Positions 9,095 through 59,660 of a stretch of DNA of 64,000 nucleotides are shown here, one piece after another. The notes under the pieces were generated by a model. That model was not told where the DNA came from, did not search any database, and worked only from the letters and a program-made list of their open reading frames with translations. Source of the stretch: Serendipita indica DSM 11827 (taxonomy: Eukaryota; Basidiomycota; Agaricomycetes; Sebacinales; Serendipitaceae); contig CAJVGD010000042.1 in assembly GCA_910890315.1 (NCBI GenBank), positions 2,334,955-2,398,954 of the forward strand, in the 5' to 3' direction. Each line of letters opens with the position of its first letter. Position 1 is the first letter of the stretch. Made by a program: the position numbers and the translations under genes.

Positions 9095-9354
9095 GTCGGA
9101 CTACAAGGCAAAAGGCGTTTCGAAACACCGTCACGAGCTCCTTTTGATAAGACTCGAGTGCTGGCACACTGGGTATACCTCCGTTCTGTACAGCGAGCCA
9201 GCTATAAGGCTGTGTGCCGAGAGGATGTTTCGCCGGCTCCACACAAAAACCGGTTTTGACTCAATCGAGAGATTGGCTTCGATCAGTAGGTAAATACTCC
9301 CATTCGGTGAGAGGATGGGCACGGTCAGATATCCACGAACCGCGAAATTGACTG

Positions 9355-9672
9355 ATAAAGCCCACAATCAAGCGCTGCAATTCGAAGAAGTGGCGGTCAC
9401 TGGGAAAGAAAATGCAAAGAATGTTGCAAAAGGAGTACACACCTTGTTTAACTTGGCGGGCATATCCCTGATAGCAGCCTCGAATTTGATCTAGACTAGA
9501 TAACGACCAGTCAAGGGAAGGATCGATGCCACCGCGGTGAAGGTACAAGTTGATGTTAGCAAGGGTATGATATTCAATGACAATTTTGACACGTTTGACG
9601 TCGATACCGCATCCAAAGATGTCAGTCTCTACGAGGATGCACTTCTCAAAGGTTTTAAACTCTTTGCAACAC
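9355..9672 (-). pseudogene. sub2 (DEAD-box helicase) relic, most decayed copy
   Basis: Nucleotide similarity to the 3' half of the intact sub2 gene: around 9355-9480 it matches the region near the stop codon and last exon, and 9540-9672 matches the penultimate exon (the [14 protein letters not shown] region) with substitutions at many positions and most of the last exon missing. No usable frame. It sits directly upstream of DUF6535 copy A and downstream of copy B, the place occupied by better preserved sub2 copies next to B and C. Confidence 0.75.
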
Positions 9673-9757
9673 TAGATACAACAAAAAAGCCAAGTTGATT
9701 AAAAAGGAGATTAGGATTTTATCATTCGGAGATGATGAAGATGTGATTTGAGGCTAC

Positions 9758-11821
9758 TCATGACCCTATGGGAGAGGTGGTCATGATAGTCAACGATTGC
9801 ACAACGTTAACCAGCAGTGCAAACCACAATCTATGTTCCGTCTCACCAACCTTCATCTTGCGTTCTTTCAGAATCTTCAGCAAGATCCTCTTCTCTTCCT
9901 CAGAGACTGTGTAAAAGGCCTCTGAGGTGGTGATTGCCTCCGATGCAAACCTTTTCGTCACAAGAGACGCGATTTCACCGGGCTCGTTGTCCAGCCACGA
10001 TCCATACGGCCCTACTATGCAGTCGCAGCGCATAGTAAGGAACCCCAGGAGCGCTGCAAATAAGATCTGTTTATTTTTGGCCTCTTCTAAATCATTTAAA
10101 TCCTCTTTTTTCGAACTGTCAATGTCCCGTTGCACGGCCTGCCTTAGATTGGTCAATCCAGATTCGCAGACTGAGCAAGGGTTTAGCGAATGTGCATTAA
10201 ATTGAAACCGATGCGCAAGGAGACCAAGGGCAGTATAGGCCGTACATACTGCCTTGATGAGCCGCTCCACATCGACGGAGTTGTCAGAAGGGCGCCCTTT
10301 CATCCCTAGCGTGCTGAGTGCGTACCAGCTGTATGCGTGCAACATATCCATCCATGGCGTGACCAAATCCTCATCGCATAATTTCGTTCGCAGCTCAGCA
10401 GAGGCCAGCGGGAGAAGCCAAACGAGAAACTCGCTCAAGGTTTCCGCACGTTGAAAGCGACCAGGCACCAACGTCTTGGACTCTGATCCCGGCGATTCCG
10501 ATGTCTTTTTTATGCAGGTCTTTGCGAGGAAGATGCTCCTCTTGAGGATGGATGGGTACAAGAGCATCTCGTTTTGTTGAAAATTGCATGTGAGCCACTC
10601 GAGTGAAGGAAGCTTTTTGAAGCAAAGGTCGAGGAGCCAACGCTCAGTTGCAGTGTCAGCTTGATGCATGATTTGACTGATGATGTCCAGGTCGAGCTGA
10701 TCGTACGACTTGACATACTGCTTTATACTTGTGTGATCCTCATCAATTGCTTCATCGTATACTCCAGATGTCTGTAAGGCTCGTGAGTGTGTACTCGCTC
10801 TGTTTATTAGCGTAGAGTGACGTTTTTTGAGTACATGTCCTTTATTTCGTCGGTTTACTGGTATTGGGCTGATCGTCTTGAGTATCCGTGTTAGCACGTG
10901 AGATAAGGGAGACCGAAAGGGAGCATCAGGATGGAGATAGGCTTGAATAGTTTTCCACAAGACAAAGGCCATGCATAGGGCAAATGATATGACCGGAATG
11001 TACCCGATGCGAGGGCATGTGGAGAAGATGAGGTCAGAGATGCCAACCATGGCAAGGAGGACAGCCAGAAGCATCAAGAGAGAAAGCCAGTCTACGATGC
11101 CTATGAAGTCATACCACTCAATCCCACTATGCAGGAAATAGTGCGCGCGAGCTCGATGATGTGGGGAAGAGAAGGCAGATACGATCTCGCGTTGATAGTT
11201 GGATGCCCATTGGTTAACCAAGATGCAGAGTACGGCCACACCCAGGGCGATACTAATGGCGCCAAAGAGAAAAATGTTTACGCGGATACCAAATGCGGGT
11301 GGTGGTTGAATCCTTGAGCTTGGACTTTCACCATTATTCAAGGATTCGAAGATTCCGAGTAGAATTTCGTTCGGATCTGGCGATAGCTTGGAGAAGGTGA
11401 TGGGGATGAAGGCTGCGACGGCAGCTGAGAACAGACCAGCCTAATCGAATAAGCATAATATCACATTGTGGTTGAATGGCTTACAAAAGTGAGCAGAACC
11501 TGTGCAGTATCATTCGCATCCTTGATCGTGTCTGCGTCCATCCTTGCCGCGTTCGCGTTATAGTAGTCCCAGATGGTAATGATTTCTTCATCGTCTCCAA
11601 TCAAATCTTGATGCGTTTCTGGTGTGAAAAAATGTGGAAGTGGCGCCGCACGAGATGGAATTGACGGCAAAGCACGCACAACCAGAGGTGCACTCACTGG
11701 GGCCGGCGTTGGGCCCGGCCCTCGTTCCATGCGCACCCAACGCTCCACTGTTATTCTATTATCAGCCGAACGAAGCTGATAGGAGATGCATACCGCCGTG
11801 TCCCTCCGCTATAAAGGGCAT
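9758..11821 (-). CDS. DUF6535 multi-pass membrane protein, copy B (3 exons)
   Basis: Paralogue of copy A. Exons 11821-11794, 11747-11485 and 11440-9758 sum to 1974 nt, 657 residues. Starts MPFIAEGHG then ERWV across the first intron, followed by a proline-rich stretch, the conserved IWDYYNANAARMDAD, and four hydrophobic segments matching copy A (for example FLFGAISIALGVAVLCIL and DWLSLLMLLAVLLAMVG). The FRSPLSHVL motif is present. It lacks the long Ser/Thr/Pro-rich C-terminal tail of copy A and ends soon after the helical domain. A real ATG was found only by splicing to the short upstream exon. Intact frame; function unknown; likely a membrane protein. Confidence 0.83.
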
Positions 11822-12059
11822 CTGATCTCGACGAAATGTGGGGGCGTCCTATCTATCAATCAACAGTATTCGGAAGTCACTGTTCATTATCTAGGTAAAG
11901 AAGAGAGGTCTAGACGGAGATCTAGACGAGTCGTGGCAGCTCAGGATTTTGCATCTAATTGATAAGACATCTCAACCCGCCTCGACCAGACAACACATGA
12001 CCTCTCTTCAAAAGGTGGTTAAGACGACGAGATCGTGTCAAGAGAACGTTGCATTCTGA

Positions 12060-13226
12060 GATAAATCCAGGATCGAGCGCTACAAACTTAAGAAGAGCCA
12101 GAGAGAAGGGTTCAACATCTCGGTAACCGTCACAATGAGCTACACGTACTGTACGTAGTCTTGTCCAACTCTGCAGGCATCCCCGTGATAGCAATCTCGA
12201 ACCTGCTCTGAATTTGCTCCAACACGTCCAGATCGGCCTGTGACGAGACAAATGTGAGGGCTAGACCTTTGGTACCGAAGCGACCAGCTCGCCTATACGA
12301 TGGTCAGTCAAAAAAGTTGCGATGATCGAGCTACGCACCCGACACGGTGAAGGTACGAGTCGGCGTCTGCGGGAGTATCGTAGTTGATGACAATGTTGAC
12401 ACGTTCGACATCGATACCGCATCCAAAGATGTCAGTCGCGACGAGGATACGCTTTCAAAGTTCTTAAACTCTTTATAGCGTGAGATACTATGGCAATGGT
12501 CAAAGGTATTCGTAAAGGGTCGTGATGACTTACCGCTCCTCTTGAGAGAGACCAGAGTGCACGGTAGTACCCGGGAAGCCACATTCTCGGAGCAACTTGT
12601 CCAATTCGACCGCACGTCCGACGCTCTTGACAAAGATGACAACTTGGTTAAAGTCAAGGGTGTCGAGGAGGTCGTTGAGCTTGCGGTTCTTTTGCGTCTC
12701 CTCGAGGCGAAGGAAGTATTGCTGGAGATCGTGCAATGTGAGCTTTGACTCGCCATCGATGAAAATTTCCAGTGGCTATCGCAGCATTAGCAGGAGTCCA
12801 TATACGACGAGGATACGGACGTTATTCATAAACTTTTTGCACGTAACGCGAATCTCTTTCGAGAGCGTTGCGCTAAACATCATGACTTGCTTGCTGTGAG
12901 GGGTGATTCGGAAGATTTCCTGGACGTCGCGCCGCATATCTGGTTGAGCATGCCGGAAGGACCGCATGGTGGTGAAGAAAAGAGTAGGTAAGAACGTTGT
13001 CGAATGACGGAGAGCGCAAGCAAGAGAGAGTCCACCCAGTCTATTCCCCAGAAAACACCTCTGACAACTCCTCAACACGGGACTAGACATGGAGGTGTCC
13101 AGCGAAAGGGTGAGCCGGTCAAATGTCGCACGACTGGTGGTTCTGATGGTGGCGAAAAAAGAGGAGTCGAAGTGAGACTAACCGAGCTGCTCGAGCATTT
13201 TATCACACTCGTCGAGGACGAAATGC
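12060..13226 (-). pseudogene. sub2 3' fragment, second decayed copy
   Basis: Close nucleotide copy of the intact sub2 gene at 16618-18455, but containing only the last ~40 nt of exon 3 and exons 4-7 with their introns. It breaks off abruptly near 13226, where the dispersed repeat begins. A missing T near 12449 shifts the frame in the penultimate exon, and the motif corresponding to FGRGID reads FGCGID. Without exons 1-3 (Q motif, ATP-binding motif I) it cannot make a helicase. Recent by divergence: long runs are identical to the intact copy. Confidence 0.88.
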
Positions 13227-13233
13227 TAGACTC

Positions 13234-13458
13234 CCGTCTTTTATCAGCCATGGAAGCAGAGGCAGTGGACCGTGGCATCGCGCACCGCTTCCATTAGAGC
13301 TCCGTGTATGATAGTTCAGTGGGTGAAAATACTTATATGTCGTGTAGAACTCGTCCACATCGCATCCGCCGTGAGCGGTGACGCCTCCCTTGCAGTCGCC
13401 CATCTTACATGATGAAACGCAGCCATATTACCAGGCACCCTACGAGCTTAGGGCGTGA
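13234..13458. repeat. Dispersed 225-bp repeat, copy 2
   Basis: Same sequence family as 6121-6344. Here it starts 8 bp after the point where similarity to sub2 exon 3 stops, so it marks the recombination breakpoint of the duplication. It contains no convincing gene; a short open frame on the minus strand does not survive in copy 1. Confidence 0.8.
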
Positions 13459-13729
13459 GCGAGACTAGTATGGTGTGACTATCATTTATACTTGCACAAC
13501 TCGAGGTTTACATTGGAGAAACAGTCACTCGGGGCCGGCTTCAGGCCATCTCATGACATATCGAATTTGTCACCGACATAGAGTTGCGAACACAGAGGCT
13601 TTCACCAGCACACTACACGCGAATCTGTTGTTGAATTGTAGCATCCTGTGGTTGCGCTCATCAATAGGGCGAATCGTCAGAGCAAACTTGAATTGCGCAC
13701 CATTGTCCATGTCTTGGCTTAGATAAATT

Positions 13730-16297
13730 TCATCGTGATCTTGTCGAGATCGAGCACACGAGGTCTAAGATGGGTGTGAACCAGAGCTGTCTAGCCAAGT
13801 CGCTGGCGTCCGCGCTATGCGCTTTTAGGATTCGCAAGAGTATCTGAGCCTCGTCTGGAATGTATACATAGGAGCGTGATGGACTGCGGGAGGGCGAAAG
13901 AAACCATTGTCGTATGACGGACATAATGTCATCGCATTCCGACATGATTGAACCCGGTGGTGTCTGTATACAGTTGCTGCGCGTGCATAGAAATGCTAAG
14001 ATCGCCTTAAAGATTGCTGGTACATGATCTTCATTTTCAGGTTGCGTATTGGACACGTGAGAAGCCGCATTTGCGATCATCATGAGATTTTGAAGTCGCA
14101 AAGAACATGTCGTGCACTCGATAGGGAGAGGTCCCTGTAGGTGCTCGACTAGGCCGAGGGCATTATATGCGCTACATGATGCCTGAATAAGCCGTTCTCT
14201 ACTGATTGGGTATTCGCTAGGCGGTGTATCCTCTGATAGGCACCAAGCGCGTACGAGCCAAGTGAATGTAGCATTTTTCTCCAGTGTGTTATCGAGGTTG
14301 GGTTTTGTGGTTTCCAGCGGTATGCTTGAGAGTCCAACGAGAGAAACCATACGAGAAACTCGCTCAAAATCAGTGCGCGTTCGAAGCGAGTAGATACCAG
14401 TGATATCTCTCCGACACTTGACGCATCTTGTACGCAAGTCGTAGCAAGGAAAACGCTGGCATCGAGAGCAACTGGTTGCGAGAGAATCTCGCTAGCGGCT
14501 ACATTTTCCGCCACCAACGTGAGTGAAGGGATTTTCTTGAAACAGCTGTCCATAAGTCCGCGTTCCGTTGTCCTGTCAGCTTGGCGCAGGATTTGGATGA
14601 TGATCTCCAGATCGAGCTCAAAACACGATTTGACGTATTCCTTTACATTCCTGTGGATCTCATTCGAGTGATCCAAAGTCTCCAAGTTACTGCGCCTGAT
14701 CCGCCATATGCTGCCTGACATGCTGTCAATTATCCTGAGACTACCCCCTAAAACTTGGGATAAAGGAGACCGGAATGGAGCATCTAGATGCTGAATGGAC
14801 TGAAAGGTTTGCCACAGAATAAAGACCATGCTCAGGATGAAGGTCAGGACAGGAATCGTTCCAACCCCGGGTGAGATGGAGAATATGAGGTCGAACATAC
14901 CAACCATGGCGAGGAAAACCGCTAGGAGCATCAGGACGGAGAGCCAGTCCACAATGACTACGAAGTTGTATCGCTCTACGCCACGATGGAGGAAGTAGCG
15001 GACCCGAGCTTGATGATGTGGAGAGGAGAAGTGCGTTGCAATCTCTCTTGATAGCTACGAGCCCATTGATTAACGAAAATGCAGAGTACGGCAACAACCA
15101 TGGCGACGCTGATGGCACCAAAGAGAAATGCATTGACTCGGGCACCGTATGATGGCGATTTTTGGATATTTGGCATTGAAATGCTGTCGTTTTTCAAGGT
15201 TGTGAGGACGGCCAGGAGGGTTTCGTTAGGATCCGGGGATAGTTTTGCAAAAGCGATGGCGATGAAAGCCGCGAGAGCAGCTGAGAGGAGACCAGCCTAC
15301 TCGAGTAAATACATGGACTTGATCGTTGTGACGAGAGACTTACAAAGGTAAGGAGAAGCTGTGCTGTATCATTTGCGTCCTTGATGAGATCTGCATCTAC
15401 CTTCGTCGCCCTTACGTTGTAATGATCCCAAATGGTATAGGGCCTGTCATACGTCGTACTTGGATCGCATTGGTTCACTGCGATTGGTGGAGCACCTTGG
15501 TCGCCCTTAACGTAGTTCGGTATGCGAGGGCTACGCAAGGCAAAATGGGTCCCCATGGGACTGATCAGATAACTGGTGCTTAAAGCTGTCGTCTCCTTAA
15601 GAGGTGGCACGCTTCTCGTGTCACTTGGGAGTGTGGTGCTTGCTTCATTGATGGAGGGGTCGATATTCTGCTGGTTTTCTATGCGATCCGACACTCCATG
15701 AGCCTGGTTGAGGTCCACCTCATTGGTAGATGGTTGAGTATATGCATTGTTGCCTGCTTGTTGGGTGCCCGACTGATCACTCGGGCAAGGAAGCGGGGCA
15801 TCTGTGTTACTGACGAAAGACTGGACAATCGGATGTCCCTGTGCTGTGTCATCTGAGGCAATATGATCATCCCTGGCGGGCGCTTCGTCGGGAGGCGGTT
15901 GATTGATTGCTTTGTCGCTTGGGAGAGGGGAGTTGGGCCCGTTGCCGGATATTAATTCACGCGCGGATGGAAGGGTGGTTGCATCACCGGAAAGTAATGT
16001 ATGGACCTCCCGGGGGGTCGCAGAACTACCAGAGGATCGGTTGATCAGGTCGTTACCAGACGGGTGCTTACTTGTATTCGGGCCATACATTGGAGGGGGT
16101 GGGGGTACTTATCCAGGGGGTAGTTCGTTGTGGTCCCGTAACTGTAACTGTCCGGCCCCGAGGGAGAGCCCCTTGGCGTTCTGCCCGAGAGACCTACCCA
16201 ACGCTCCATAGCTAGTCTTATTAGAATTTGATTATTAGGGAACTAAGATGAGCACACCTCCAGGCGTAGCCTTATCCACTGTAAAACGTCCGGCCAT
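13730..16297 (-). pseudogene. DUF6535 membrane protein, copy C, frameshifted
   Basis: Exon layout like copies A and B: a short first exon 16297-16258 (MAGRFTVDKATPG), the MERWV exon 16211-15344, and a last exon from 15296. Three breaks are seen. Near 16095-16130 the frame of MERWV changes in a run of Gs before the long polar region starting MYGPNTSKHPSG (an unrecognised intron could also explain this). Near 15056, after NQWARSYQ, one base is missing relative to copies A and B, so the frame is lost before SSPHHQAR. Near 14240 a second shift occurs before the CSAYNALGL motif. All transmembrane segments are still recognisable in pieces. The middle exon carries a ~200-residue Ser/Thr/Asn/Pro-rich insertion absent from A and B. 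Confidence 0.78.
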
Positions 16298-32962: not shown

Positions 32963-35900
32963 CTACCAATGACTAGGCTTTGGTGAGTCCCGAGAACGAC
33001 CAGAGGATCCGGCAGTCGATTGCAAAACCGAGAGCTTTCTGGTAAACGTAGCCGCTTGAAGGTCACTGCGACTCATCAGGGTCCTCGCGCTCCTCTCAGT
33101 GCGGCCAGATTCGGATCCACCCGAGGATCCTTGTACCCGAAATCTTGAAGCTACTCCATCACCACTGCCTTGACTCCCTACAAGCTGTTCTACTGCGGTA
33201 TGACGAGTCCCTGAGCGTTGATGGTCGCGAATCGGCCTTGGAGTCTCGAGCAAAGAGCTGGCCGACGAGCCACTTTCCGAAGAGTAGTCCTCTTCGTTTT
33301 GCAGGGGCGAACCATACCGAGCCATGGCGTGTTCAAGTGAGAGGTTATCAAATTTCTTCGATAATCTTCGGAGATCCTTTATCTTCCCTGTCATAAAGCG
33401 TGACATCCGGTTGGCCGCCTTGACGATGCTCTCGTCCTCAAAGCTGGTCGAGTTGCTGGAGGCAACCGCACGCGCAGTGTGAGTGTCGGCGAGGCGAAGA
33501 GGTCGACTCGGCACCGGTGGAGTACCACCAGCTGAGATGCCTTGTGCATAGGATTGGTTTGGATGAGGTTCGGGACGAGATTTGGATTCATTACGGCGAG
33601 CATTTCGTGTTCCAGGCGTCGCCTTCGACATGCTCGAGACTGCTTGAGATAGGATATGGTCAAAGCTGACGGTCTGCCGCTTGCTTCTCTTGCTTTCGTA
33701 GGCAGTTGCATGTGCCGTGGGGTTGTCAAGATTAAAGGGCGACATTTCGCGGGACAGGATAAAGAAGGACCCATCCTTGATGCGGCGCTGAATGAACTTC
33801 CAACGAGCCCGCGCCGGGTTGACTTCCGAGGCCGGCTGATACAGCGAGAGTGCCGCCATCTCCGTGTAGAAGCTCTCGACTCGCTCGGCAATCCTTGCGA
33901 GAAAGCCGATCAATGTAACAGAAAGCTTGTAAAGAGCCTATTTGGGACCTAGTTAGTACGCTTCAAACCAGGATACGAACTACTCTACCTGCTTCTCTTT
34001 GCTTGGGTAGGCCTGGACGACCTCGGCGACCCGTAAGAAAACATCATAGCCTTGACATAACTCTTCACGAATCTGCTCTATAAAGCGGACGTCCAACTCG
34101 CAGATATTGCGGGTGTACGCAATGATCCCATGCTGAAATGCGGGCGCACTGGTAGCAGAGTTGCTCACAAACTCTCCCAGTTCTGCAACCTCTTTGCGAG
34201 CCGCTACAGCCGCTGGACTGGAGCCGGCCTGGGTAATCGTCCCAACGATATCAGGCAGAAGTGACTCTTGGTCGTGATCGGCGACATAAAAGGAGAGTGT
34301 TAGAGTGAGCTCCTGCAATTTGGTGCCAAATAGTACGGGAAAGCCAGTGAGTGTAAGAAACCTAAAGGGAGCAAGCGATTAGTTGACGGAGACGAAATGC
34401 CATGAATAGCTTTACCTCGACTGAAGCTGATAGAGTTTTCGGATCGCATGAGTTGAAAGAAGGCCGTCGGAAAACCAAAGCTTCGAGTCTTTTTTGAGCG
34501 TATCAACTTCGAAAGAGAGCGTCGTCAAGCTCTCCACTGTCGTACGCAAATAATCCACCCAGCCATCGTAGAGGTCGTTGAGTTCTCTGGTCCGGAAGGC
34601 AGGCTTTGGTGTTAAGTAGCCGATGAAATATTTGCCAAGCAAGCTCATGACTTCTGGGTTGGTTGTGTGCGCAACCTCATCGAAAGTTACGCTTGCGTCG
34701 ATGCCAGCCGAGCCAGCAACGATTAGAGTTCCACCTGGATGAATAGGAAGAAACTCTGTTACATCATAAACAGAGCCGTGGACTCCAATCCACATCCTAG
34801 ACCCCTGTCTATGGCCCGTGTGTCTCGAAAGCTCGGATAACGGGATAAATGGCTCCTTCTCGCTCATGACTCTTGGCGTCATGAAAACGTCTAGCATGCA
34901 ACGACGCTCGGCAAATGCTTGAGCGAGAAGTTCATCCGCGCCTTCTGTAGTAACCGCTCGGAACTGATAGAGGGCTTTGCGGAATCCACGCATCACCGTC
35001 TCGTAGAGAGACACGCTCCCGCAAATATATAGATAACCGCCTAGGCCCCCGAGTTTGGTTGAGATGATCAGGTCGCACACCGTCGGTCCTTGATCAATGA
35101 TCGTGGCATCGATATATCGGGGTTCCATTGTCTTCTCCACAAGATCACGAGAGACGGGATCATATACGAGACCAGCGGTGTCCCGAGAGAAGGCAACGTG
35201 GAGCTCGAGCTTCCCCGATTGAACGTGGTCGCGAAGCTCGTGCTTATACAGAAACTTTTTTCTCGACTGCACGCCCAGGAATAAGATATTCCGACCAATG
35301 ACCCCGCTGTTGAGCCGTGCTTGCCAGAATCCACGGAAAGGCGCAATTCCCGAACCAGCAGCAAACATGGCTACAGGAGCGGCGGGAGAAACCGGAAGTT
35401 GGAAGTTGAGCGGTCGAGAGATTCCAATGAGGACCTATGTTCGATCAGCCGAAAGGTCGAGATGGCCCGAGATGACCAAAAGCGTTAACTCACCGTCTCG
35501 GTTGACTCCTTACCAGCAGTCAGAGGATGCCGTGGAGACCCGTCGACAGTAGGGTCTGGGTTGAGGAACCCCGAGCAGACGCCTGGACGCGAATTTGGTT
35601 GACCGTCGAAAAGTAGGAAGGGAGAGACTGGGTGTTCCGCTCGTGTAACGGTAAGATCAACTGACTTTGGGAGGAGGTCGAATGGAAAGCATGATATCGA
35701 ATATGTACGTGGCACTTCGGGTGGAATAAGTGCTGGAAGCCATGATAGATTGTCGAGAGGGAATGCTTGATCCCAAACATTTGCAGGTACATCGCCCAAG
35801 GCAGCCATAAGGAGATCACCCAGCGAACCGACGACCGGCCAAGTCTCTGAGCCGAGGACTTGCAAAGTTGCGGATGAAACTTGCACCATAGAGTGTATCT

Positions 35901-38391
35901 ATCATGAATGAGCCCAACGCGACCGTATCCCAGAGAGCTCACTGACCATGACTACAGTCTCCTTTGTCAACGGGGCGAGCTTGCCTTTACGAAGAATATC
36001 CCGAACAGTGAGAGAGCGCTCAAATCTCGAGTCGAGCTTTTTGACATCGGCTTCATGTCGTGCGTATCGCTTCCACTTGGACGCAGTGGGGGCATCCAGT
36101 GGGACGGTTACGTCCAGGAAATCGATCAGACCAAGTGCACCGACCACTTTCTGATGAACATGTCGGATATCAAACTCAAATCAAAGAGACTGACTCACCT
36201 CGACATCTGACCAAGAGTTTAAGGGCATCACTGCAAGTCGGTCGCCAGGGATAAACGTCAAGCCAACATTTTCGAGATCAAAAGTGACTTGGCCTGTCGA
36301 GCGATGCGGGTCGTCGTCGATGGACGTGCGTTTGACAATCTTGGCAAGGAAGCGACATTCGTCATAGGTACCTCTCATTTCTTGCGGCTGAACGTCAAGG
36401 GATTCCGCACCACGGTATGGTTCGAGCCGCTCCTTCATCGAATCGGCGAGCGTCTTATGAACGGTTTGCCAAGGACGGCCGACAGTATCAGACGATCCTG
36501 CACCTCCACTGTCACATGTGAGTAAATGCGCAGTCAACGAGAAATGTACAAACTTTGTCTCGACTCTGCCTGTTTTCGCGACGATCTCCAAAAAGCCATA
36601 GACTTTGTCTGGTCTGTCGTTAGCTTTTGCCTCTTGTCGGTCTTATACAATTCACGAACATCGATGGGTACCCCTAATGAAATCAATCAGCGGCCGAAAG
36701 GAGACGGGTAATAATACGCACATGAATCCCTTCTCTCCCGCGTAACTCTCTACTATAGCATCCAGGACGCCAATTAATCGTGGATCCCCACTTTTCTGAA
36801 TATAAGGTACGACTGGATAGTGATTCTCAATCGCAGCAAGAAAAGCGCGAATGTTGAGTGGCATCCATGCTCTTAGGTGAATCGACTCGATTCCGAGGAA
36901 CGACTTGAAATTCGTCCGCTGCCGACTATATGAGCGGAGGACAAGTAACTGAAATCGTCTTACCATAAGGAATGCATCCATGCATTGGAAAACGGGCAAG
37001 AATAGCCCAGAAAGCGCAGGAACGCGCTTAGATAAAGGTGCTGAGAATTTTGCGTATCCTAATCACAGCTAAGCTTTTCTGTGAGATTCACGCATCATAC
37101 TTACCTTGACCCCATGAAGCCGGTGGTGCAAAGTTTTCTGCTCTTGTTAGCGAGATGAGACGTCGGGTTCGTAAACGTACCACCAGAGTGAGGATTGACG
37201 GAAATCTTGTGAAATACGTATGAGAGCTGGTCGATGATCTCCTTTAGTTTGATCAACTCGACCAAGAGGCCGTCATTGTCCTTCTCCATCACCCGTTCTT
37301 GACACCGAGCAATTAGGTCCGGTCCAGGAATGAATAGGCCGTGAACTTCAGCCTAAATCGGTTATAAAAATGTAACGGCAGCAGCATGTGTGACGAACCA
37401 TGCAAAGCAAGAACATGGCTTCACCGCGATCCTTGAATATGGGCCAGCGCAAGTCCATGTTCTCTGCACGAGGAAGATATGGATATATCGAAGTTGGGTC
37501 TCGAATCTATGAGGTGTAAGATACTCGGATCGCGCTTGAATGAGCCCTCTGACCTTGTAGTTGTGAAGCGAGACGTCGGATTGGGAGAGGTACGGGAGAG
37601 GACGACCCAGTCTCGTGCATACTTGCCGAAATGGGATGACAATGTTACGAGGTATACCAATTGTTTCTGGTTCCTCGTCTGGTTCTCCATGGGAGTTTGT
37701 CAACTGCTCCTTGCGGACACCTTTGACGATTCCTTCGTGGCCATCGTTGCGCTCCTCATAGCGCCAGATAGAGGCGAGGATTCCCAAGCAGACGACTGCG
37801 GCCCATAGTGCTGCGTCTGGAATAGTGGCTTCGGACCCGTCGATGAGAGGTAGCTCGAGAATAGCCTCACGAATGCGGCCTCGTGCTGCTCAGGAAAGAA
37901 AATTAGCAACCTGGTTCAACGAATGATGACGAATTCCCACCGATTAGACCTGGCATTCGAGAACAAATGTCACTCCATACCCTTCCAGGTGAGAGTGCGA
38001 GCGCAGCGGGTGCCGCATTTGGATCTGGGGGACAAAATCCATGCTTTGTCGATAGCCATCCGTCGCGCCACCCAGTCACAGGTCCCAATGCATCAGCTCT
38101 CTCTAGAACGCGCCGAGCGGGTGCTCCAAGAGCGACTGCGAGGATATCGGCTTCAGAGGGATTCAGTGAGTCCGCGTTCGCCATATTCTTTGTGATCTCT
38201 TTAGGAGGAGCAGTAGGTAAGAGAACCTGGCAGATAGTCTTTCGCTCCTTTTCCAGCGCCACTTCAGCACCACGAGTACCTGGGGACGATCCATATAGGG
38301 TTTGCGATCCAGATGCTTCCAAGGAGCCCAAGAAGGCACATCCTCGTGGGCCATACCCAGCAAAGGTTTGGCCAGTTGCAGGACAGCTCAT
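32963..38391 (-). CDS. IDO-like dioxygenase / FAD-NADPH reductase / cytochrome b5 fusion (about 15 exons)
   Basis: Very large multidomain redox protein, roughly 1600 residues. N-terminal: MSCPATGQTFAGYGPRG, then an indoleamine 2,3-dioxygenase-like heme domain (RPLPYLSQSDVSLHNYK, NMDLRWPIFKDRGEAMF, YVFHKISVNPHSG, YAKFSAPLSKRVPALSG, LRAWMPLNIRAFLAAI, SGDPRLIGVLDAIV, then GTHRYKVYGFLEIV, whose His fits the proximal heme ligand). Middle: sulfite-reductase/P450-reductase-like FAD and NADPH domain (FIPGDRLAVMPLN, RTYSISCFPFDLL, AAGSGIAPFRGFWQ, GYLYICGS), without an FMN domain. Then cytochrome b5 (YDVTEFLPIHPGGT, with VAHTTN for the second heme His). The C-terminal ~520 residues are helical then Ser-rich. 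The start at 38391 is the first ATG of the N-terminal frame. I joined the exons of the N-terminal half and the last three junctions by GT-AG sites in frame; those in the middle of the reductase are approximate. No break seen. Role inferred: a heme oxygenase that carries its own electron-transfer chain. Confidence 0.82.
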
Positions 38392-43424: not shown

Positions 43425-45432
43425 ATGTTTGCTCCATTTGTTCTCGTTGCGTTGGGTGGGTCTTCTTCTCACTCACTCATGGACCCGACTCACGAACCTC
43501 TAGCGGCGACCATTGTCTCCGGATTCAAGAATCCGATCATTTCTGGTGTCAATCCAGATCCTAGTATTGCCAGAAAAGGCAAGGATTACTTCCTGGCGAC
43601 ATCATCATTCGAATACTTGTGGGTAATCTCTTCGACATCGTATGAAATCTAACTCGAGTCTAGCCCCGGCGTCCCGATATATCACTCCACGGACCTGTAC
43701 GTAGAGATACGGCTTCATAGCCCGCGTGCTCACGTTATCTAGGATCAAATGGGAGGTAATCGGGCATGCGCTCAACCGTCCATCGCAGCTCGACCTGCGC
43801 GGGACTGCACCAAGTGGAGGTGTATTCGCACCCACATTACGGTACAATCAAAAGACGGACACGTTTTACATGGTCACGACGCCTTTTCATGTCATCAGCC
43901 CTCCTGATAACACAACTCTCTTGCCTCGCTCGTTCTACGTGTCGACAAAGAATATTTTCGACGAAACCGCTTGGTCCGATCCTATCTGGGTGGATCAATG
44001 GGGAATCGATCCTGATCTCTTCTTCGATGATGACGGCAAGGTATACTTTACATCGACATTTGGTTCAACCGATCTCGGCTATCCCGACTCGGGATACTTT
44101 GCAATCTGGACGACAGAAATCGATATCAAAACGGGCAATTCGCTCACAGAGGCACGCTTCCAAGTCCAAAGCCAGTACACGAACCCTCGATTGACAGAAG
44201 CTCCTCACCTCTTCAAGCTGAACGGCAAATATCATCTCATCACAGCCGACAGTGAGTTTATTCTCGCCCGACGGGGTGGTATATTGACCACCTTAGGCGG
44301 CACCGATATTGATCACAAGACGGTGCATTATATGGGCGACACGCCCTATGGCCCTTGGAAAGCCGATCCGAATAATCCACTGCTGTTCAATGGTGCGCTA
44401 TGTTACTCTATGGCAACTCTACTTCGCTCACATTCCCAAAGGCCGCGATCGCTCTCAGCCTATTCTCGCGACTGGACATGCGGACCTTGTTCAAACTCCC
44501 GGCGGTGATTGGTATGCAGTATTCCTGGCCACTCGACCGCAGAACCCGACCAACAGCACGGGTCATCCTCAGCTCGGTCGCGAGACATTTATGGCACCAG
44601 CAAAGTGGACATCAGACGGATGGCTCAAAATTAACGACGGGAAGGATATTACATTCGACATGCCCGGTCTCTACAACCTTCAACCACCAAAAATCTGGAG
44701 AGACGACTTTCGTGGAAAGTTTGTTGACAAGGCGTGGTATACTCAGAGGACGCCGTAAGTATACACAATCTTTATGGCCATCTACTGAGTCTACTAGGTA
44801 TAAAAAGTTCCACTCGTTTGTTCCAGGGGGTCTTCGGCTCCATCCCAATGTCTATACGCTCAGCGACCGAGAAACGCCTGCCGCGTTCTTCCGCAAACAA
44901 AAGGACCTCAACGTCGTCTTCAGTGCTGAACTCGACTTTAAACCCACTTCGACTCGTCACGAGGCAGGAATTACCGTATTCCTCTCCATCTGGTATCATA
45001 ACGAGGTCGGCATCACTCTTCATCCAGATACAAAGGAGCGGACGCTGTTCGTCAAGACCCGCACAGGTCCAAATGCAGATCTGACGACCAAATACGTACC
45101 ACTCACCCGTCCGGGACCCGTCAAGCTCTTCATCAAGGCCGAGCCAAATCAGTACTCCCTCGGATATGCTGTCGGACCTGGCCCAGCCAAGTATCTCGCT
45201 CAAGTCGACAACCAGTGGCTACAATCATACGTTCAAGGGTCCGTATTTCCTCAGTGTCACAACTTTGGCTGACATAACGAAAGGTGGCAAAACTTTGTAG
45301 GGGCTCACTTTGGTGTCTACGCATCCGCGAACAAACTGCCCGCGCTTGTATCAGCGGTATGCCTCTGTATTCTCAAACGCTTCAACTCATGCCTTTTAGG
45401 ATTTCAAGTACGTTCAAACCGAGTTGCAATAG
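43425..45432 (+). CDS. Secreted glycoside hydrolase family 43 (beta-xylosidase/arabinosidase type)
   Basis: Five-bladed propeller hydrolase of xylan or arabinan side chains. Exon starts/ends read: 43425-43618, 43664-43696, from 43743 onward with further introns at about 44250-44300, 44391-44440, 44755-44800, 45240-45285 and a last exon ending 45432. N-terminal hydrophobic signal (MFAPFVLVALGGSSS). Catalytic residues of the family are visible: the Asp base in NPDPSI, the pKa-modulating Asp in GIDPDLFFDDDG and the acid Glu in EAPHLFK. FPGVPIYHSTDLIKWEVIG and LDLRGTAPSGGVFAPTL resemble the beta-xylosidase branch. The C-terminal half is the beta-sandwich domain seen in GH43 xylosidases (FHSFVPGGLRLHPN, AGITVFLSIWYHNE). 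Substrate not certain. Confidence 0.9.
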
Positions 45433-51174: not shown

Positions 51175-51591
51175 TGTAGGCTAATGCATCTTCTCTGAGA
51201 GCTCTATTTCGAGCCGGAATCAAGGATTAGTCTTCATCGCTTTAGTCCTTGTCTAGTTGCCTTCTCCATTCGCTAGATTGTTCCCGTTCTGTCCTCGTAT
51301 GGTCACTCGGCCGTCGTCACTCTTTAGCCTGTACCTGGAGTCAGTGCCTTGTGGCCGTCGAGGCCCCATGCTCAGTTCCTGCATTTCTTGGGGTCTATTT
51401 GGAGACTCTATAGACTGAAGTATTGAGGTTCTCTGGTATCAGAAGAGTGAATTGTATTCCTTGTAACTGGCCTGGATGATACACGCGTTCACAGGTTCTT
51501 TTCGTCTAAAGTCGACTTTATTCATCGTTCCTCGAATACAAAGTCTCGACTCGACGTTCACAACGTCTTCACTCTCACCAAAAACCTTACA
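51175..51591 (-). mobile_element. Solo LTR nested in the copia element, copy 1 (417 bp)
   Basis: Ends TGTAGGCT ... CCTTACA, flanked on both sides by the perfect 5-bp duplication gatgc (51170-51174 and 51592-51596). It interrupts the copia coding frame between the AAED and ALAYSIP segments. It is an inverted relative of the element at 52218-52645 (its reverse complement aligns along nearly all its length). No internal coding, so it is a solo LTR or a very short non-autonomous element. Confidence 0.92.
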
Positions 51592-52217
51592 GATGCGTCT
51601 TCAGCAGCTAATTGGGCATTATCTTCGTCGGAGCTCTCATTTAGTTCGAGATCCGAGTCGGATTCAGTCAAAGTGCCTGGCTGACGCGCAATTGTGTGTC
51701 GTCGTGCCGGGAGGTTCCTAGGAACCTTCTCAAAATTGGTCTGGTCAGTGAGTGCTCGAAGTTCACGACTCAGACGCTGGGGAGCTGTGGGTTTAGGCTG
51801 CGCAGGCGCTGGTGCTGGTGGAGGGACAGGCTCGTGGGGAATAGGTGCTGGTACAGGTCGCCCTGCAACGTGGACAGGAGGATGAGTGCCTGGAGGTGGA
51901 ATGTATGATGAAGAGGTGTTGATTTCCTCGAGATCTGGCAGCTGGATGTAGTCAGAGAGGTTCGGGGTCGGTTCCTTTGCAAACGAAGTGCCCGGAAAGA
52001 TTCTCTCATCGAATACAGCGCTGCCGCTGTGTATATTCTTGCGTGTCTGCAGGTTCCAGAACACCAAGCCAGGGCGGTCGGATGGGTACCCGACAAAGAT
52101 GCACTTCTCAGTGTGCGAATCGAGAGCATTCCGCTGTGATTTAGGGACAAAGACATAGGCAAGGCATCCAAATACTCGAAGGTGATTAACACTGGGAGCT
52201 TTACCATGCCAGTGTTC

Positions 52218-52645
52218 TGTAAGGTTTTTGGTGAGAGTGAAGACGTTGTGAACGTCGAGTCGAGACTTTGTATTCGAGGAACGATGAATAAAGTCGACTT
52301 TAGACGAAAAGAACCTGTGTAACGCGTGTATATTGAGGACGGTTACAAGGGAGTACAAGTCTACTCTTCTGATACGAGAACGGTCAAGTACTACAGGCTA
52401 TATAGAGAGTGTGGAAATAGATCGGAATGAATGGAGGAACTGAGGATGTAAATCGGGACGAGCAGAAGGCATCTGACTCAGGTATAGGGGTAAAAGAGTG
52501 ACAATGGTCAGAGGACCATAAGGAACAGAACGGGAACAATGTAGCGAATGGAGATGGTAACTAGGACAAGGACTAATGCGATGAAGAATAATCCTTGATT
52601 CGCACGAGGTAGCAGCGTCGTGCAGAGCAGACGCGCGAGCCTACA
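52218..52645 (+). mobile_element. Solo LTR nested in the copia element, copy 2 (428 bp)
   Basis: Starts TGTAAGG and ends GCCTACA, flanked by the perfect 5-bp duplication tgttc (52213-52217 and 52646-52650). Removing it and one duplication copy restores the integrase reading KTPYE-HWHGKAP. Opposite orientation to copy 1; the two differ by scattered substitutions, so they are separate insertions rather than one inverted duplication. Confidence 0.93.
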
Positions 52646-54164: not shown

Positions 54165-57100
54165 TCAAACTTTGGTCCACAATGTCCCACACTGGAAATT
54201 AGTGAAATCAAGCTTGGTTGCTCTAAGGTGACTTGAAGTGGGTATAGTCAGAACAAGACGTGGGTGCTTCAGTCCATGACGGTTATTAGGTGGTACCCAG
54301 AAGAGGTATTGACCAGAAGACTGCACCCATCCATCAGGCAGCAAAGAACAATCACCAAATCTAGGCATAAAGAGAACTGGACCAGTGGAAAGAAATTTGA
54401 TATGGCTAGAGAAACGTGTTCTATTTGATAGATTACCTGCATTTAGCATATGGTCAGTTGCCATAACAAACTGACACTACAAACCAAAGAGATATTCAGA
54501 ATCGACTCACCATTGTCCGAACTCGAGATTTGAATTGTCCTACAATGGAGCCAGAGACAACTGTGTGCCATCTGGTGAGATGCGACAGCGTTCACCGAGT
54601 ATTCATGACCTTGGAGTGGCTCTCCCAATGGCTGGCCAGTCTCTGCATCCCACTGTCGAATTGTGCTGTCTCTTGAGCCAGAGACGATTCGTGTGCCATC
54701 TGGTGAGAATGCGACAGCGTTCACTGAGTATTTATGACCTTGGAGTGGCTCTCCCAATGGCTGGCCAGTCTCTGCATCCCACTGTCGAATTGTCCTGTCG
54801 CTTGAGCCAGAGACGATTCGTGTGCCATCTGGTGAGAATGCGACAGCCATGACCTCGTCTTCATGACCTTGGAGTGGCTCTCCCAATGGCTGGCCAGTCT
54901 CTGCATCCCACTGTCGAATTGTGCTGTCGCTTGAGCCAGAGACGATTCGTGTGCCATCTGGTGAGAATGCGACAGCCATGACCTCGTCTTCATGACCTTG
55001 GAGTGGCTCTCCCAATGGCTGGCCAGTCTCTGCATCCCACTGTCGAATTGTGCTGTCCCTTGAGCCAGAGACGATTCGTGTGCCATCTGGTGAGAATGCG
55101 ACAGCCATGACCTCGTCTTCATGACCTTGGAGTGGCTCTCCCAATGGCTGGCCAGTCTCTGCATCCCACTGTCGAATTGTGCTGTCCCTTGAGCCAGAGA
55201 CGATTCGTGTGCCATCTGGTGAGAATGCGACAGCGTTCACCGAGTATTCATGACCTTGGAGTGGCTCTCCCAATGGCTGGCCAGTCTCTGCATCCCACTG
55301 TCGAATTGTCCTGTCCCAAGAGCCAGAGACGATTCGTGTGCCATCTGGTGAGAATGCGACAGCGTTCACCGAGGATTCATGACCTTGGAGTGGCTCTCCC
55401 AATGGCTGGCCAGTCTCTGCATCCCACTGTCGAATTGTGCTGTCCCTTGAGCCAGAGACGATTCGTGTGCCATCGGGTGAGAATGCGACAGCCATGACCG
55501 AGCCTTCATGACCTTGGAGTGGCTCTCCCAATGCCTGGCCAGTCTCTGCATCCCACTGTCGAATTGTGCTGTCGCCTGAGCCAGAGACGATTCGTGTGCC
55601 ATCTGGTGAGAATGCGACAGTGTTGACGAAGGATTCATGACCTTGGAGTGGCTCTCCCAATGGCTGGCCAGTCTCTGCATCCCACTGTCGAATTGTCCTG
55701 TCCCTTGAGCCAGAGACGATTCGTGTGCCATCTGGTGAGAATGCGACAGCGTACACCAAGGATTCATGACCTTGGAGTGGCTCTCCCAATGGCTGGCCAG
55801 TCTCTGCATCCCACTGTCGAATTGTGCTGTCCCTTGAGCCAGAGACGATTCGTGTGCCATCTGGTGAGAATGCGACAGCGTTCACCCAGGATTCATGACC
55901 TTGGAGTGGCTCTCCCAATGGCTGGCCAGTCTCTGCATCCCACTGTCGAATTGTGCTGTCCTTGAGCCAGAGACGATTCGTGTGCCATCTGGTGAGAATG
56001 CGACAGCCATGACCGAGTCTTCATGACCTTGGAGTGGCTCTCCCAATGGCTGGCCAGTCTCTGCATCCCACTGTCGAATTGTCCTGTCCCAAGAGCCAGA
56101 GACGATTCGTGTGCCATCTGGTGAGAATGCGACAGCCATGACCTCGTCTTCATGACCTTGGAGTGGCTCTCCCAATGGCTGGCCAGTCTCTGCATCCCAC
56201 TGTCGAATTGTGCTGTCGCTTGAGCCAGAGACGATTCGTGTGCCATCTGGTGAGAATGCGACAGCGTTCACCCAGTATTCATGACCTTGGAGTGGCTCTC
56301 CCAATGGCTGGCCAGTCTCTGCATCCCACTGTCGAATTGTCCTGTCCCTTGAGCCAGAGACGATTCGTGTGCCATCTGGTGAGAATGAAACCGCTGTGAC
56401 ACTACCCTGGTGACCTAGCAGCGTTCTGGGAAGCTCACGAAATGTTTCTTCAAGCCCTCTGGTCACAATTAACGAATTCATATACTCCTTTAAACCCTCC
56501 GTATGAAGTACCGACTTCCGTGGACTGAATGGGAGAGATGAGATGTAGATGTGTGGTGCGCTGTCTTGGATTGGTACAGAGAATGCCATCAAAAACCTTC
56601 TGATGTCATTCATCCGACCTCGGATCTCTTGCTCAAGCTATCTGTTGCTTTAGTAATCGGAAGGTCTCAAATAATCCACGCACACTCTTATGTTGCGTCG
56701 CAGCTCGCATTCCAGATACTGCCCGCATGACTCCTCCAGTCACGCTGAGGATCTCCATCCAATAGAGTGCGAATGGACTTTTGACTATACGTGCCAGCTC
56801 ATTCCTTAGCCTGCGGCCCCAGTCACTGTCCATTGCGGCAACATGGAACGACCAGTGCAAACTAGCATAGCGAAGCCTCCGCGAAATGAATTTCGCAACC
56901 CGGGCGTCAAGGTCTGTAATCTGCCTATTCAGATAGAAGGATGACTCGATTTGGCAAATATTAAACTTGAGCCCCTCCTTGCGCGATTTGAGAGTGTGAA
57001 GACACCATGACGCGGCTTGGCCATGTGCACGCGCGATGTTGATAAGATTCCTGTCGCAATCGCCGATAATTTCGGTGCTACAGCGTCGTCGAAGATATTC

Positions 57101-59660
57101 GAAAAAGGTGGGGTGACGAAACTGTATCGAGTGCGTGATCGGATCCTCCTTAAGTACACTTCCCAGAATCCGTACCAGCGCTTCGGCACTCCCTTGTCCT
57201 TTGGTATGCTGAACAAGGTCTTCCAAGTCATTGGTGGTGAGTGGCTCGAACGCAGCAAGCAGCATACCGAGCATCTCGATGATAGCTGGTTTGGATGCTC
57301 GGTCAATGCGCTCGAAGACGAGGTCGTATACCTCGTCGATGGCTCCAGGCTGATCAATAGACGTCAGGCGATCATATATGGCCGCTGTATTGACCGCAGA
57401 TGATTCATCATCGAGCATCCGACACGCAGTGCTCGCCCAAATGAACAGCCCCTTGGCCTTATCAACCAGTCGCTGGATCTTATCTGGCGTCAGGCGCCGG
57501 CCGAGCAATCGATGGACGTATATCGCAATGTCATCGATGTTATCGCGGTGGCTAGCATCGTGGAGCCGATCTGTCAACTTGGCCTTGATCGAAAGAGGTT
57601 CTAAAACCCTTTCGACCACAGGGTCTGGTCGACTTGTGATGAATATCCGAAGATTCTTGCTCTCCTGAGCAGAAGCGAGAGTCTCAACCAGTTCTTTTCT
57701 CTGTGCTCAGACTTGCATTCGTCGAGTGCATCTAAGACGAGGACTACTTGCGTCTGTCGATGCTGGAGTGGGTCGGTGATGAGCATTCGAAACTGTTGAT
57801 CAAAAGAGGCTCGCAGGAGAGCAGGATTCCGCTTTACTATCTCCGCAATCGGTGTCCCAAGCTCGGGAATATGTTGAGCGAGTTCCTCGCCATGGTCGAG
57901 CAAAACTTTTCGATGTCTGAGCTTTCGCTGCTTGCCATGGAAAGAAGAATCCGCCGCCTAAGATTCCTTGCTTCTTCCACTTCTCCATTGCAGTCATCGC
58001 GACGGTCGATTTTCCAGAGCCAGCTATATCACATAGCCAGAAGATCGGTTTTTCTGATGAATCGCCATCGGCCCATTGCGAGATTGTCTCGAGGACAGCC
58101 TGGCGAGTTCCTTTGAACAGGTGGTATGGACAGAGGATGGGGCGAATGCGACTACCGGCAGTTGAGATACGAAAAGCGCGTCGTCTTGAGAATATTAGTA
58201 AACCTTCGTGTACACGAGATAGTTCATACCTGGTTGAGGGATGGTTCCTCCCTTCACGACGGCTACTCGTGGGTCAGGAAAGAATCAGCGATGTATACGA
58301 ACTGCGCAAGTTATTCTCCATAAACCATTTTTGTGCACGGCATCGGGGCGTTCTCAGCGCACTCCGTGAGATAGTAAGCAACTGCTTGGTAATCTTCACT
58401 CTCTTCCGTCTGGAATCTGACAAGGTTCTGGTGATCGCTATGGAGTGACCGCAATAGCGTTTTGATCGCCAGCGATCACCGCCGAGTGATACGGAACATT
58501 CTATAAGCCAGTTAGCACCCACCCATAAGACGATTTAGCGCACCTACCAAACGTATCTGCTGTTCTTCGGCTCCGGTGCTGTATTCCTCGCAGAAGAAGA
58601 CGCTGTTTATCTTTTTACTCGCGGTGAGATACAAGCTCTGGATGTTTTCGAGTTCATCCGAGTGAGCGTGAAGGTTCTTGACAATGACTTCTGTCGATTC
58701 CATACATGGCGCTGCCAGGCGAACGATCTTCTTAAGGAGCGTGTCTTCTACGCCGGAATGCGGGGTTCCAAAGAAGAGGATGGAATGGGTGGATACCAGG
58801 ATATTTCGCATGCTGCCTTTTGATTCCAGGTCCTCATTGTTGCATATGACGAGCGCCTATGAGACCGTCAGGGTCAAAATGTAGTGGACATCCTCGGACG
58901 AACCCATTTGAGAATGATGCCTCCCAAATCGTGAGCAACAAAGATGATGGGGCGCTAGGGTGATTAGGGAAGAAGGCACCGGTTTACGGATGCCACTCAC
59001 TCGAGGAGCATCTTTACGCTTCCGTAAAATAGCTTGAGCCAGACCGACGGCGTGGCGGCGCATAGTCTGGGTCGATACGCACTCCGTACTGTGAGTGTCG
59101 GCGTCGTAGCCATAGGTCAGGATACGGGCACGAGGCAATGAGGACGGCAAGAATTGGCGTAGCCAAAGAACGCCATCGTCTGTCATCCAAGTCTTTTCTC
59201 TGTGACCATTTAAGCCGTGGATTGCTATGATACTGGAGCGGGGAGGTCAGCACGAAGCGACTACAGTGCCCCAGAATGTGCTTACTCGACGGTGGGATCC
59301 TCTGGGCATACTAATTCCACCAACCCAAGATCCTCTTTCTTCGATGTTGGCTCGGGAAGTTCGAATATGTTGGGGTATGCAGTTGCAGCAACCAGGTCGT
59401 TGGCTTGTTCCCAAATCTGGGTACAGTAACTCAGAACTCGTTGAAATGACCATGCGTTGTCTTCCTCTTGCAGCATTGCGGACTCGTGAGTTATTCAAAC
59501 TGTCGATATTGTCGTCTGAAGGGGGTTCAAGACACACTGTAGGGGTGTTACAGTCCCAGCGTTGGCGCTGTACGTGGGTGCCGGGAGCAAGCCTCGTGGT
59601 TTGTGGGCTAACCAGCCAGATTACCGGTCCAAAGCGCTGATGTACATTGTCCAATCGCAT
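54165..59660 (-). pseudogene. NLR-type gene: alpha/beta-hydrolase (SesB-like) + NACHT + WD40, with one-base frameshifts
   Basis: Fungal NOD-like receptor layout; family members act in non-self recognition and programmed cell death. N-terminal: EDPTVE, IIAIHGLNGHREKTW, RARILTYGYDAD, FVAHDLGGIILKW, FFGTPHSGVED: a SesB/PGAP1-like hydrolase fold with Asp in place of the nucleophile Ser of GHSLGG. NACHT: FWLCDIAGSGKSTV (Walker A), VVLVLDALDEC (Walker B), IFITSRPDP, FRHPTFFEYLRRR. A 50-nt intron (GTGCGT...ATAG) near 56687-56637 leads into the repeat part. About 14 WD40 units follow, then a conserved tail (SLLPDGWVQSSGQYLFWVPP, RATKLDFTNFQCG). Frame breaks by one missing base each are seen near 57960, 57890, 57693, 55957 and 54570. 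Whether these are real or sequencing errors in homopolymers is open. The exact start (59660 or 59476) is uncertain. Confidence 0.8.
54560..56420 (-). repeat. Tandem 129-bp WD40 repeats, about 14 near-identical units
   Basis: Each unit encodes 43 residues on the pattern GH[41 protein letters not shown]. Nucleotide identity between units is near complete except for codons at fixed places: the residues after GH (ESW, ESL, ESF, EGS, ESS, EYS, EDE, KYS, EYW, EDS), the N/M/Y-A/T pair after V, and the residue before D in SGS-x-D (R, S, G, W). Spacing is 129 bp throughout except one 128-bp unit at 55909-56037 caused by a lost C. Confidence 0.95.

What the first reader, a model, noticed from the sequence alone, without database searches (positions are those of the whole stretch)
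32963..38391. Self-contained heme-dioxygenase electron-transfer fusion
One gene appears to encode an IDO-superfamily heme domain, an FAD/NADPH reductase lacking the FMN module, a cytochrome b5 domain and a ~500-residue helical/polar tail of unknown nature. Human IDO needs external reduction (cytochrome b5 and reductase have been implicated); here both partners seem built in. The distal His of the MPPAHR-type motif is replaced (MPLNIR), and the FAD domain would feed b5 directly. This points to chemistry other than plain tryptophan cleavage. I believe related fungal fusions exist in databases as unnamed oxidoreductases; I know of no biochemical description.
Basis: partly seen in the sequence, partly recalled or inferred. 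Interest (0 to 1): 0.75.

Follow-up and report, generated by a model that had tools for sequence, protein, structure and literature searches.

The report
Self-powered IDO-like fungal heme enzyme
One fungal gene encodes a tryptophan-dioxygenase-like heme enzyme joined to its own NADPH-driven electron supply and to a helical tail; many other fungi have the same fusion, and I found no description of what it does.

Summary

Most likely it is a self-sufficient IDO-superfamily oxygenase: NADPH to FAD to b5 to IDO heme. The substrate is unknown and probably not plain tryptophan; three ordinary IDO genes are present. 'NO synthase' and 'sulfite reductase' labels reflect only the reductase module. Ten searches of an open-licence library found no description. 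Activity, electron flow and substrate are inferred. New variant of a known kind.

The parts
32963..38391 (-). whole gene, 15 exons, 1,580 aa (exons 38391-37941, 37885-37554, 37506-37399, 37352-37181, 37137-37105, 37058-36964, 36918-36722, 36673-36660, 36608-36554, 36508-36199, 36150-35947, 35898-35494, 35434-34416, 34361-33989, 33937-32963)
   Evidence: spliced, corrected against P0001; all introns GT-AG, 43-59 bp
38287..38391 (-). N-terminal leader (aa 1-35), MSCP...GPRGCAF; Cys-Pro/GPRGC motif
   Evidence: GPRGC-type motif in the first 75 aa of 86 of 120 relatives (34 lack it, several of them visibly truncated models), 80 of these 86 with one or two CP before it; beyond residue 75, 199 of 6,417 28-aa windows hold a CP
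36412..38136 (-). IDO-fold heme domain (aa 86-518, with introns)
36660..36673 (-). 14-nt microexon carrying GTHR; codon of His466 (36666-36664), the likeliest proximal heme ligand
   Evidence: H in 119 of 120 rows; the exception, P0030, has R. H411 and H503 are invariant too
36847..36864 (-). MPLNIR, counterpart of IDO1 MPPAHR
   Evidence: aligned
35500..36372 (-). CPR-type FAD-binding part (aa 532-790), with RTYS and GVCS motifs
   Evidence: Pfam FAD_binding_1; R, T, Y and S in all 118 rows with a residue; Foldseek to SiR-FP60, BM3 FAD domain, CPR
34871..35499 (-). NADPH-binding part (aa 791-980)
   Evidence: Pfam NAD_binding_1; S875 and R876 119/119 non-gap rows, C930 120/120, D974 120/120
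34613..34837 (-). cytochrome b5 domain (aa 992-1066), axial ligands H1024 and H1048
   Evidence: Pfam Cyt-b5 2e-13; H1024 117/117 and H1048 119/119 non-gap rows; PDB b5 hits
33740..34558 (-). helical-bundle tail domain (aa 1085-1322)
32966..33739 (-). polar, probably disordered C-terminal end (aa 1323-1580) with one better-conserved stretch (around aa 1401-1450)
   Evidence: conservation profile

Best explanation
A catalytically self-sufficient heme oxygenase of the IDO superfamily. NADPH reduces FAD in a CPR-type module that has no FMN domain. FAD passes single electrons to the b5 heme in the same chain, and b5 reduces the His-ligated heme of the IDO-fold domain. That heme then binds O2 and oxygenates an aromatic, probably indole-like, substrate that is not simply L-tryptophan. 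Because electrons are on hand throughout turnover, one-oxygen (monooxygenase) outcomes are as likely as ring cleavage. The helical tail probably scaffolds or dimerises. Shown: one gene, domain order, folds (by prediction), conserved cofactor and hydride-transfer residues, deep conservation in Fungi. Inferred: heme binding by H466, direction of electron flow, oxygenase activity, substrate class, role of the tail.
For: One gene with the same four domains in 110 of 120 listed relatives, from two Dikarya phyla and a chytrid. IDO fold over the whole heme domain. H466 119/120; counted back from the matched C-terminal end (P0051 474, IDO1 400) its counterpart P0051 H422 sits 52 residues in, close to IDO1 H346 (54; number recalled). 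FAD RTYS 118/118, NADPH S/R 119/119, C930 and D974 120/120, b5 axial His 117/117 and 119/119 of non-gap rows, so no module looks dead. IDO1 is reported to be reduced by CPR with or without b5 (passages). IDO1 is reported to have concurrent monooxygenase activity (abstract), and MarE of the wider superfamily is a 2-oxindole-forming monooxygenase assayed with ascorbate (passages). Three ordinary IDO genes in the same genome can cover Trp cleavage.
Against: No biochemical, spectral or genetic data. H466 is not the only conserved His: H411 and H503 are H in 120/120 and H345 in 114/120. The PDB sequence alignment stops just before H466, so its match to the IDO1 ligand rests on conservation and position, not on an inspected superposition. 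Profile-profile comparison with this genome's own IDOs was not significant (hhalign probability 1.8), the Pfam IDO match covers only profile positions 8-211 of 412, and the exon-wise Pfam IDO search of the genome did not list the window's gene. One listed model, P0138 (Didymella, 700 aa), has the IDO part, b5 and tail but no reductase; gene-model fault or real loss, not resolved. FAD-to-b5-to-heme geometry was not checked. Purified IDO1 accepts several activating systems in vitro, so fusion to a reductase does not by itself prove oxygenase turnover.
Confidence: 0.6

Rival explanations
1. Self-reducing tryptophan dioxygenase: the reductase and b5 merely keep the heme ferrous and the reaction is ordinary Trp to N-formylkynurenine cleavage.
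For: IDO fold; IDO1 can be kept active by CPR with or without b5 (passages); S382, aligned with IDO1 S263 (number recalled), is invariant in 120 rows.
Against: The IDO1 segment holding the recalled carboxylate-binding Arg231 has no counterpart in the profile alignment. The nearest candidate, R366, is R in 108 of 120 rows but G in the window protein and 8 close relatives. No GTGG motif in the protein. Three ordinary IDO genes are present.
Confidence: 0.15
2. Not an oxygenase of an organic substrate: the IDO-fold heme handles a small ligand (NO, nitrite, O2 or peroxide), as flavohemoglobin does, e.g. NO dioxygenation or nitrite reduction.
For: Reductase-heme fusion is the known layout of NO dioxygenases (passages in PMC3820574).
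Against: Relatives keep many invariant residues throughout the IDO domain, not only at the likely ligand. The same review contrasts haemoglobin NO dioxygenation with an IDO-like oxy-globin that cannot do it (passage).
Confidence: 0.12
3. The IDO domain is a heme, redox or gas sensor that gates electron transfer from FAD/b5 to an external partner docked by the helical tail.
For: N-terminal CP motifs in most relatives resemble, from memory, heme-regulatory motifs; the tail is a conserved helical bundle of unknown role. P0138 has IDO, b5 and tail without the reductase.
Against: No partner was identified. The IDO-only and tail-only searches listed members of this family or pieces of them (120 of 127 and 28 of 28 hits seen).
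Confidence: 0.1
4. Mis-named NO synthase or sulfite-reductase flavoprotein, as databases label it.
For: Deposited names; sequence and fold hits of the reductase part to NOS, SiR and CPR.
Against: No NOS oxygenase, flavodoxin or molybdopterin domain listed at E up to 10; SiR models match far under their cut-offs.
Confidence: 0.03

Closest known systems
Indoleamine 2,3-dioxygenase (IDO1/IDO2, PF01231)
   Different: about 20% identity; the segment with IDO1 Arg231 unmatched; no GTGG motif; fused to reductase, b5 and tail
Fungal stand-alone IDOs (IDO alpha/beta/gamma; Basidiomycota IDOa/b/c)
   Same: same superfamily and same kingdom; three such genes in this genome
   Different: the six-member family profile gives IDO1 49-55 bits but this genome's L003 only 20 bits and L001 and L002 no listed score (L001 and L002 were fragments)
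Diflavin reductases (CPR, SiR-FP, NOS reductase, BM3 reductase)
   Same: FAD/NADPH module with RxYS, SR, C, D residues
   Different: FMN domain absent; b5 follows instead
Self-sufficient P450s (CYP102/BM3), flavohemoglobin, nitrate reductase
   Same: heme or metal catalytic domain and its reductase in one chain; nitrate reductase also joins b5 and FAD (recalled)
   Different: the catalytic domain is an IDO fold, not P450, globin or Moco
MarE and other heme-dependent aromatic oxygenases
   Same: superfamily with His-ligated heme; monooxygenation reported (abstract or passages)
   Different: MarE assays used ascorbate as reductant; no built-in electron chain was mentioned in the passages seen

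Membership tests
IDO (PF01231) / IDO-TDO superfamily | IDO fold of the heme domain | tested here: met
IDO (PF01231) / IDO-TDO superfamily | proximal His heme ligand (IDO1 H346, recalled) | tested here: inconclusive
   H466 kept in 119/120 rows, at about the right distance from the end of the fold match, but H411 and H503 are invariant too and the residue-level alignment ends before H466
IDO (PF01231) / IDO-TDO superfamily | substrate-carboxylate Arg (IDO1 R231, recalled) | tested here: inconclusive
   IDO1 segment unmatched; candidate R366 is G in the window protein
IDO (PF01231) / IDO-TDO superfamily | GTGG motif of the JK loop (motif recalled; seen in the L001 and L002 IDOs) | tested here: not met
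   string absent from the protein; KTGR.ETNG follows the conserved His instead. By recall a feature of the Trp-cleaving enzymes, so this bears on substrate, not on the fold
IDO (PF01231) / IDO-TDO superfamily | Trp to N-formylkynurenine activity | not testable with these tools
   needs enzyme assay
Diflavin reductase (CPR/SiR-FP) | FAD/NADPH module with conserved catalytic residues | tested here: met
Diflavin reductase (CPR/SiR-FP) | FMN (flavodoxin) domain | tested here: not met
   not listed at E up to 10; about 14 residues between IDO fold and FAD module
Nitric oxide synthase | NOS oxygenase domain | tested here: not met
   not listed at E up to 10
Cytochrome b5 | b5 domain with two axial His | tested here: met
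   Pfam 2e-13; both His in all non-gap rows
Self-sufficient P450 (CYP102) | P450 heme domain | tested here: not met
   no P450 match listed; works like it by layout only

The most novel reading that the evidence does not exclude
The first self-sufficient member of the IDO/TDO superfamily: an NADPH-driven, His-ligated heme monooxygenase, in layout the P450 BM3 of the IDO world. It is old (Dikarya ancestor or earlier), distinct from the fungal Trp-cleaving IDOs, routes electrons FAD to b5 to heme without FMN, and carries a Cys-Pro leader that may sense or load heme.
Probability: 0.4. Interest if true: 0.85.

Novelty: new variant of a known kind. Interest (0 to 1): 0.62.

Why it matters
Whether the reduction systems that activate IDO1 in vitro operate in vivo is still called unclear (passage, PMC13142367). 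Here b5 and a CPR-type module are built into an IDO-fold protein and kept together across Fungi, so the electron route can be tested on one purified protein. If continuous electron supply turns the IDO fold into a monooxygenase, this adds a class of self-sufficient heme oxygenases with His-ligated heme. It also bears on the search for fungal NO synthases: at least two of these proteins (P0001, P0052) are labelled as such although only their reductase module resembles NOS.

Tried and rejected
NO synthase, sulfite reductase and nitrate reductase labels: rejected, because the domains that define them were not listed. Papers on fungal NOS-like genes (passages in PMC4948021, PMC10889981, PMC4929157): I could not tell whether any gene tested there belongs to this family. 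A paper on rice-blast NO that I looked for by DOI was not held.

Two-gene explanation: rejected (exon structure and relatives). Against it stands one pair of neighbouring models in Chaetomium olivicolor (P0230, P0251) that splits the protein in two; I read that as a gene-model fault.

Biosynthetic cluster: 20 of the 27 frames of 200 aa or more were scanned (two of the other seven are the gene's own exons). Matches: F-box/Sec10 (recyclin-like), GH43, WD40 repeats, DUF6535, a retroelement piece. None looks like a cluster enzyme, but genes made of short exons were not examined.

Stand-alone relatives: an IDO-only search (120 of 127 hits seen) and a tail-only search (28 hits) listed members or pieces of this family, many from metagenome contigs, as unspliced calls would give. 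A few named models hold only part: P0138 (IDO, b5, tail, no reductase), P0194 and P0217 (first half of the IDO part), P0230/P0251; ten of the hits of these two searches were compared with the window protein. Both searches scored only the ~8,000 candidates sharing most words, so distant stand-alone forms are not excluded. One scan of prokaryote genomes with two short patterns found no relative; a weak test. In one search only 120 of 309 hits were shown, so the taxonomic range is a lower bound.

Comparison with this genome's own IDOs: hhalign not significant; HMM 20 bits for L003, L001/L002 not listed (an earlier run with a larger family profile gave L001 -1.1 bits). L001 and L002 were fragments and all were spliced or cut by hand, so this is indicative only. 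A reverse search showed no scored rows in the part of the output that I printed and was not used.

Literature: ten answered searches (of these 15, 49, 84 and 102 were on NOS-like genes, IDO reductants, heme motifs and S. indica) showed no description of this fusion in their listings. The library holds open-licence PMC papers only, so absence from print is not shown.
Full report
The gene. On the minus strand an ATG at 38391 and a stop ending at 32963 bound a gene that I spliced by hand. Comparison with the nearest deposited protein, P0001 of Serendipita indica DSM 11827, exposed one more small intron. The corrected model has 15 exons, 14 GT-AG introns of 43-59 bp, and 1,580 aa; it differs from P0001 at one residue. 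A 14-nt microexon carries the GTHR of the motif GTHRYKVYGFLE. The window lies in a 24.7-Mb genome, and the near-identical protein points to S. indica (Basidiomycota, Sebacinales).

Architecture. Pfam gives IDO, FAD_binding_1, NAD_binding_1 and Cyt-b5, in that order, and lists nothing else at E up to 10: no flavodoxin, NOS oxygenase, P450 or molybdopterin domain. Two exons argue that it is one gene: 36508-36199 joins the end of the IDO fold to the FAD module, and 35434-34416 holds most of the NADPH lobe, all of b5 and the start of the tail. Of the 120 listed relatives (of 309 hits), 110 carry all four Pfam domains (my count from the table). Named ones include Agaricomycetes, several Ascomycota classes (classes recalled) and the chytrid Gaertneriomyces. 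Partial models exist: P0138 lacks the reductase, and a Chaetomium pair (P0230, P0251) is split in two.

A quick, unrooted tree of 42 rows (41 relatives chosen by me, plus the window) puts the Basidiomycota rows together, with the chytrid next to them on a long branch. Fifteen Ascomycota rows form one well-separated clade. The other Ascomycota rows do not form a clade: Pezizomycetes and Geoglossum fall nearer the Basidiomycota. Leptodontidium and Amniculicola have a copy on each side of the split. This suggests an old family with an early duplication; it does not exclude transfers.

The fused domain is not an obvious offshoot of this genome's ordinary IDOs. The same six-member profile gives 20 bits to L003 and lists neither L001 nor L002, and hhalign of small alignments is not significant (probability 1.8). 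L001 and L002 were fragments, so this is a hint only. The exon-wise Pfam IDO search of the genome listed the three ordinary genes but not the window's gene.

Electron chain. FAD motif RTYS: 118 of 118 non-gap rows. NADPH 2'-phosphate pair S875-R876: 119 of 119. C930 and D974, counterparts (by recall) of the CPR hydride-transfer residues: 120 of 120. b5 axial His: 117 of 117 and 119 of 119 (all). The module's structural neighbours are SiR-FP60, the BM3 FAD domain, CPR and NOS. With no FMN domain and b5 next in the chain, the simplest route is NADPH to FAD to b5 to the IDO heme. This fits reports that CPR, with or without b5, supports IDO1 in vitro and that b5 was proposed as its physiological reductant (passages in PMC13142367 and PMC4191572).

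Chemistry. A built-in electron supply makes P450-like monooxygenation possible. IDO1 itself is reported to have concurrent monooxygenase activity (abstract of PMC12921851), and MarE, of the same superfamily, makes 2-oxindoles in assays with ascorbate, with reduction of compound II by reductants suggested (passages in PMC11904535). Three ordinary IDO genes in the genome make plain Trp cleavage redundant. I therefore commit to an NADPH-driven oxygenase of an aromatic, probably indole-like, substrate at 0.6, with plain Trp dioxygenase, small-ligand chemistry and a sensor role as rivals. None of this is shown by experiment here.

Leader and tail. 86 of 120 relatives have a GPRGC-type motif within the first 75 aa, and 80 of those 86 have one or two Cys-Pro dipeptides before it; 34 lack the motif, some of them visibly truncated. 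Beyond residue 75 only 199 of 6,417 28-aa windows hold a CP. CP motifs recall heme-regulatory motifs (recalled, untested). The tail's ~240-aa helical bundle is well predicted (model of P0241) without a PDB match of note. The rest is polar and mostly unconserved.

Known or new. Relatives sit in databases as 'NADPH--hemoprotein reductase', 'sulfite reductase flavoprotein alpha-component', 'Nitrate reductase' or 'related to nitric-oxide synthase'. Ten searches of the open-licence library showed no description of the fusion in their listings. The parts are known and the combination is visible in public domain annotation; the biochemistry appears undescribed in what I could search. I rate it a new variant of a known kind.

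Noticed in passing
L002 (G000:C19:121356-122504, minus strand): An ordinary IDO gene of the same genome has a long insertion before its MPG.H motif with two words also common in the fusion family's leader (ACPAG, RCPVSG) and two more CP sites (QCPVM, and MCPAM near the C-terminus).
   Followed up: partly
G000: C44:949073-950445, C19:121356-123080, C40:723962-725371: Three ordinary IDO genes in this genome, seven exon-level matches, fitting in number the three Basidiomycota types IDOa/b/c mentioned in PMC4191572 (passage); not assigned to types.
   Followed up: partly
P0138 (Didymella keratinophila, 700 aa): A deposited relative with the IDO part, b5 and tail but no FAD/NADPH module; lineage loss or gene-model fault.
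   Followed up: partly
29224 to about 32875, plus strand: F-box plus Sec10-like (recyclin-like) gene, convergent with the fusion gene; it appears to end about 90 bp from the fusion's stop codon (reading frame at its end not verified).
   Followed up: no
54446-57706, minus strand: Run of at least ten WD40 repeats with a long upstream frame, NLR-like in arrangement; no NACHT among the families shown (25 of 55 for the first frame, none for the second).
   Followed up: no
51561-52397, minus strand: Piece of a retroelement polymerase (SH3_retrovirus match).
   Followed up: no
6433-15054, minus strand: Three frames with DUF6535 in a row, a family of unknown function.
   Followed up: no
43705-45269, plus strand: Glycosyl hydrolase family 43 with its C-terminal beta-xylosidase domain.
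   Followed up: no
P0107 (Paramyrothecium foliicola), P0115: Relatives of the fusion whose deposited models begin with unrelated-looking sequence (P0107 also lists a transcription-factor domain), probably gene-model chimeras.
   Followed up: no
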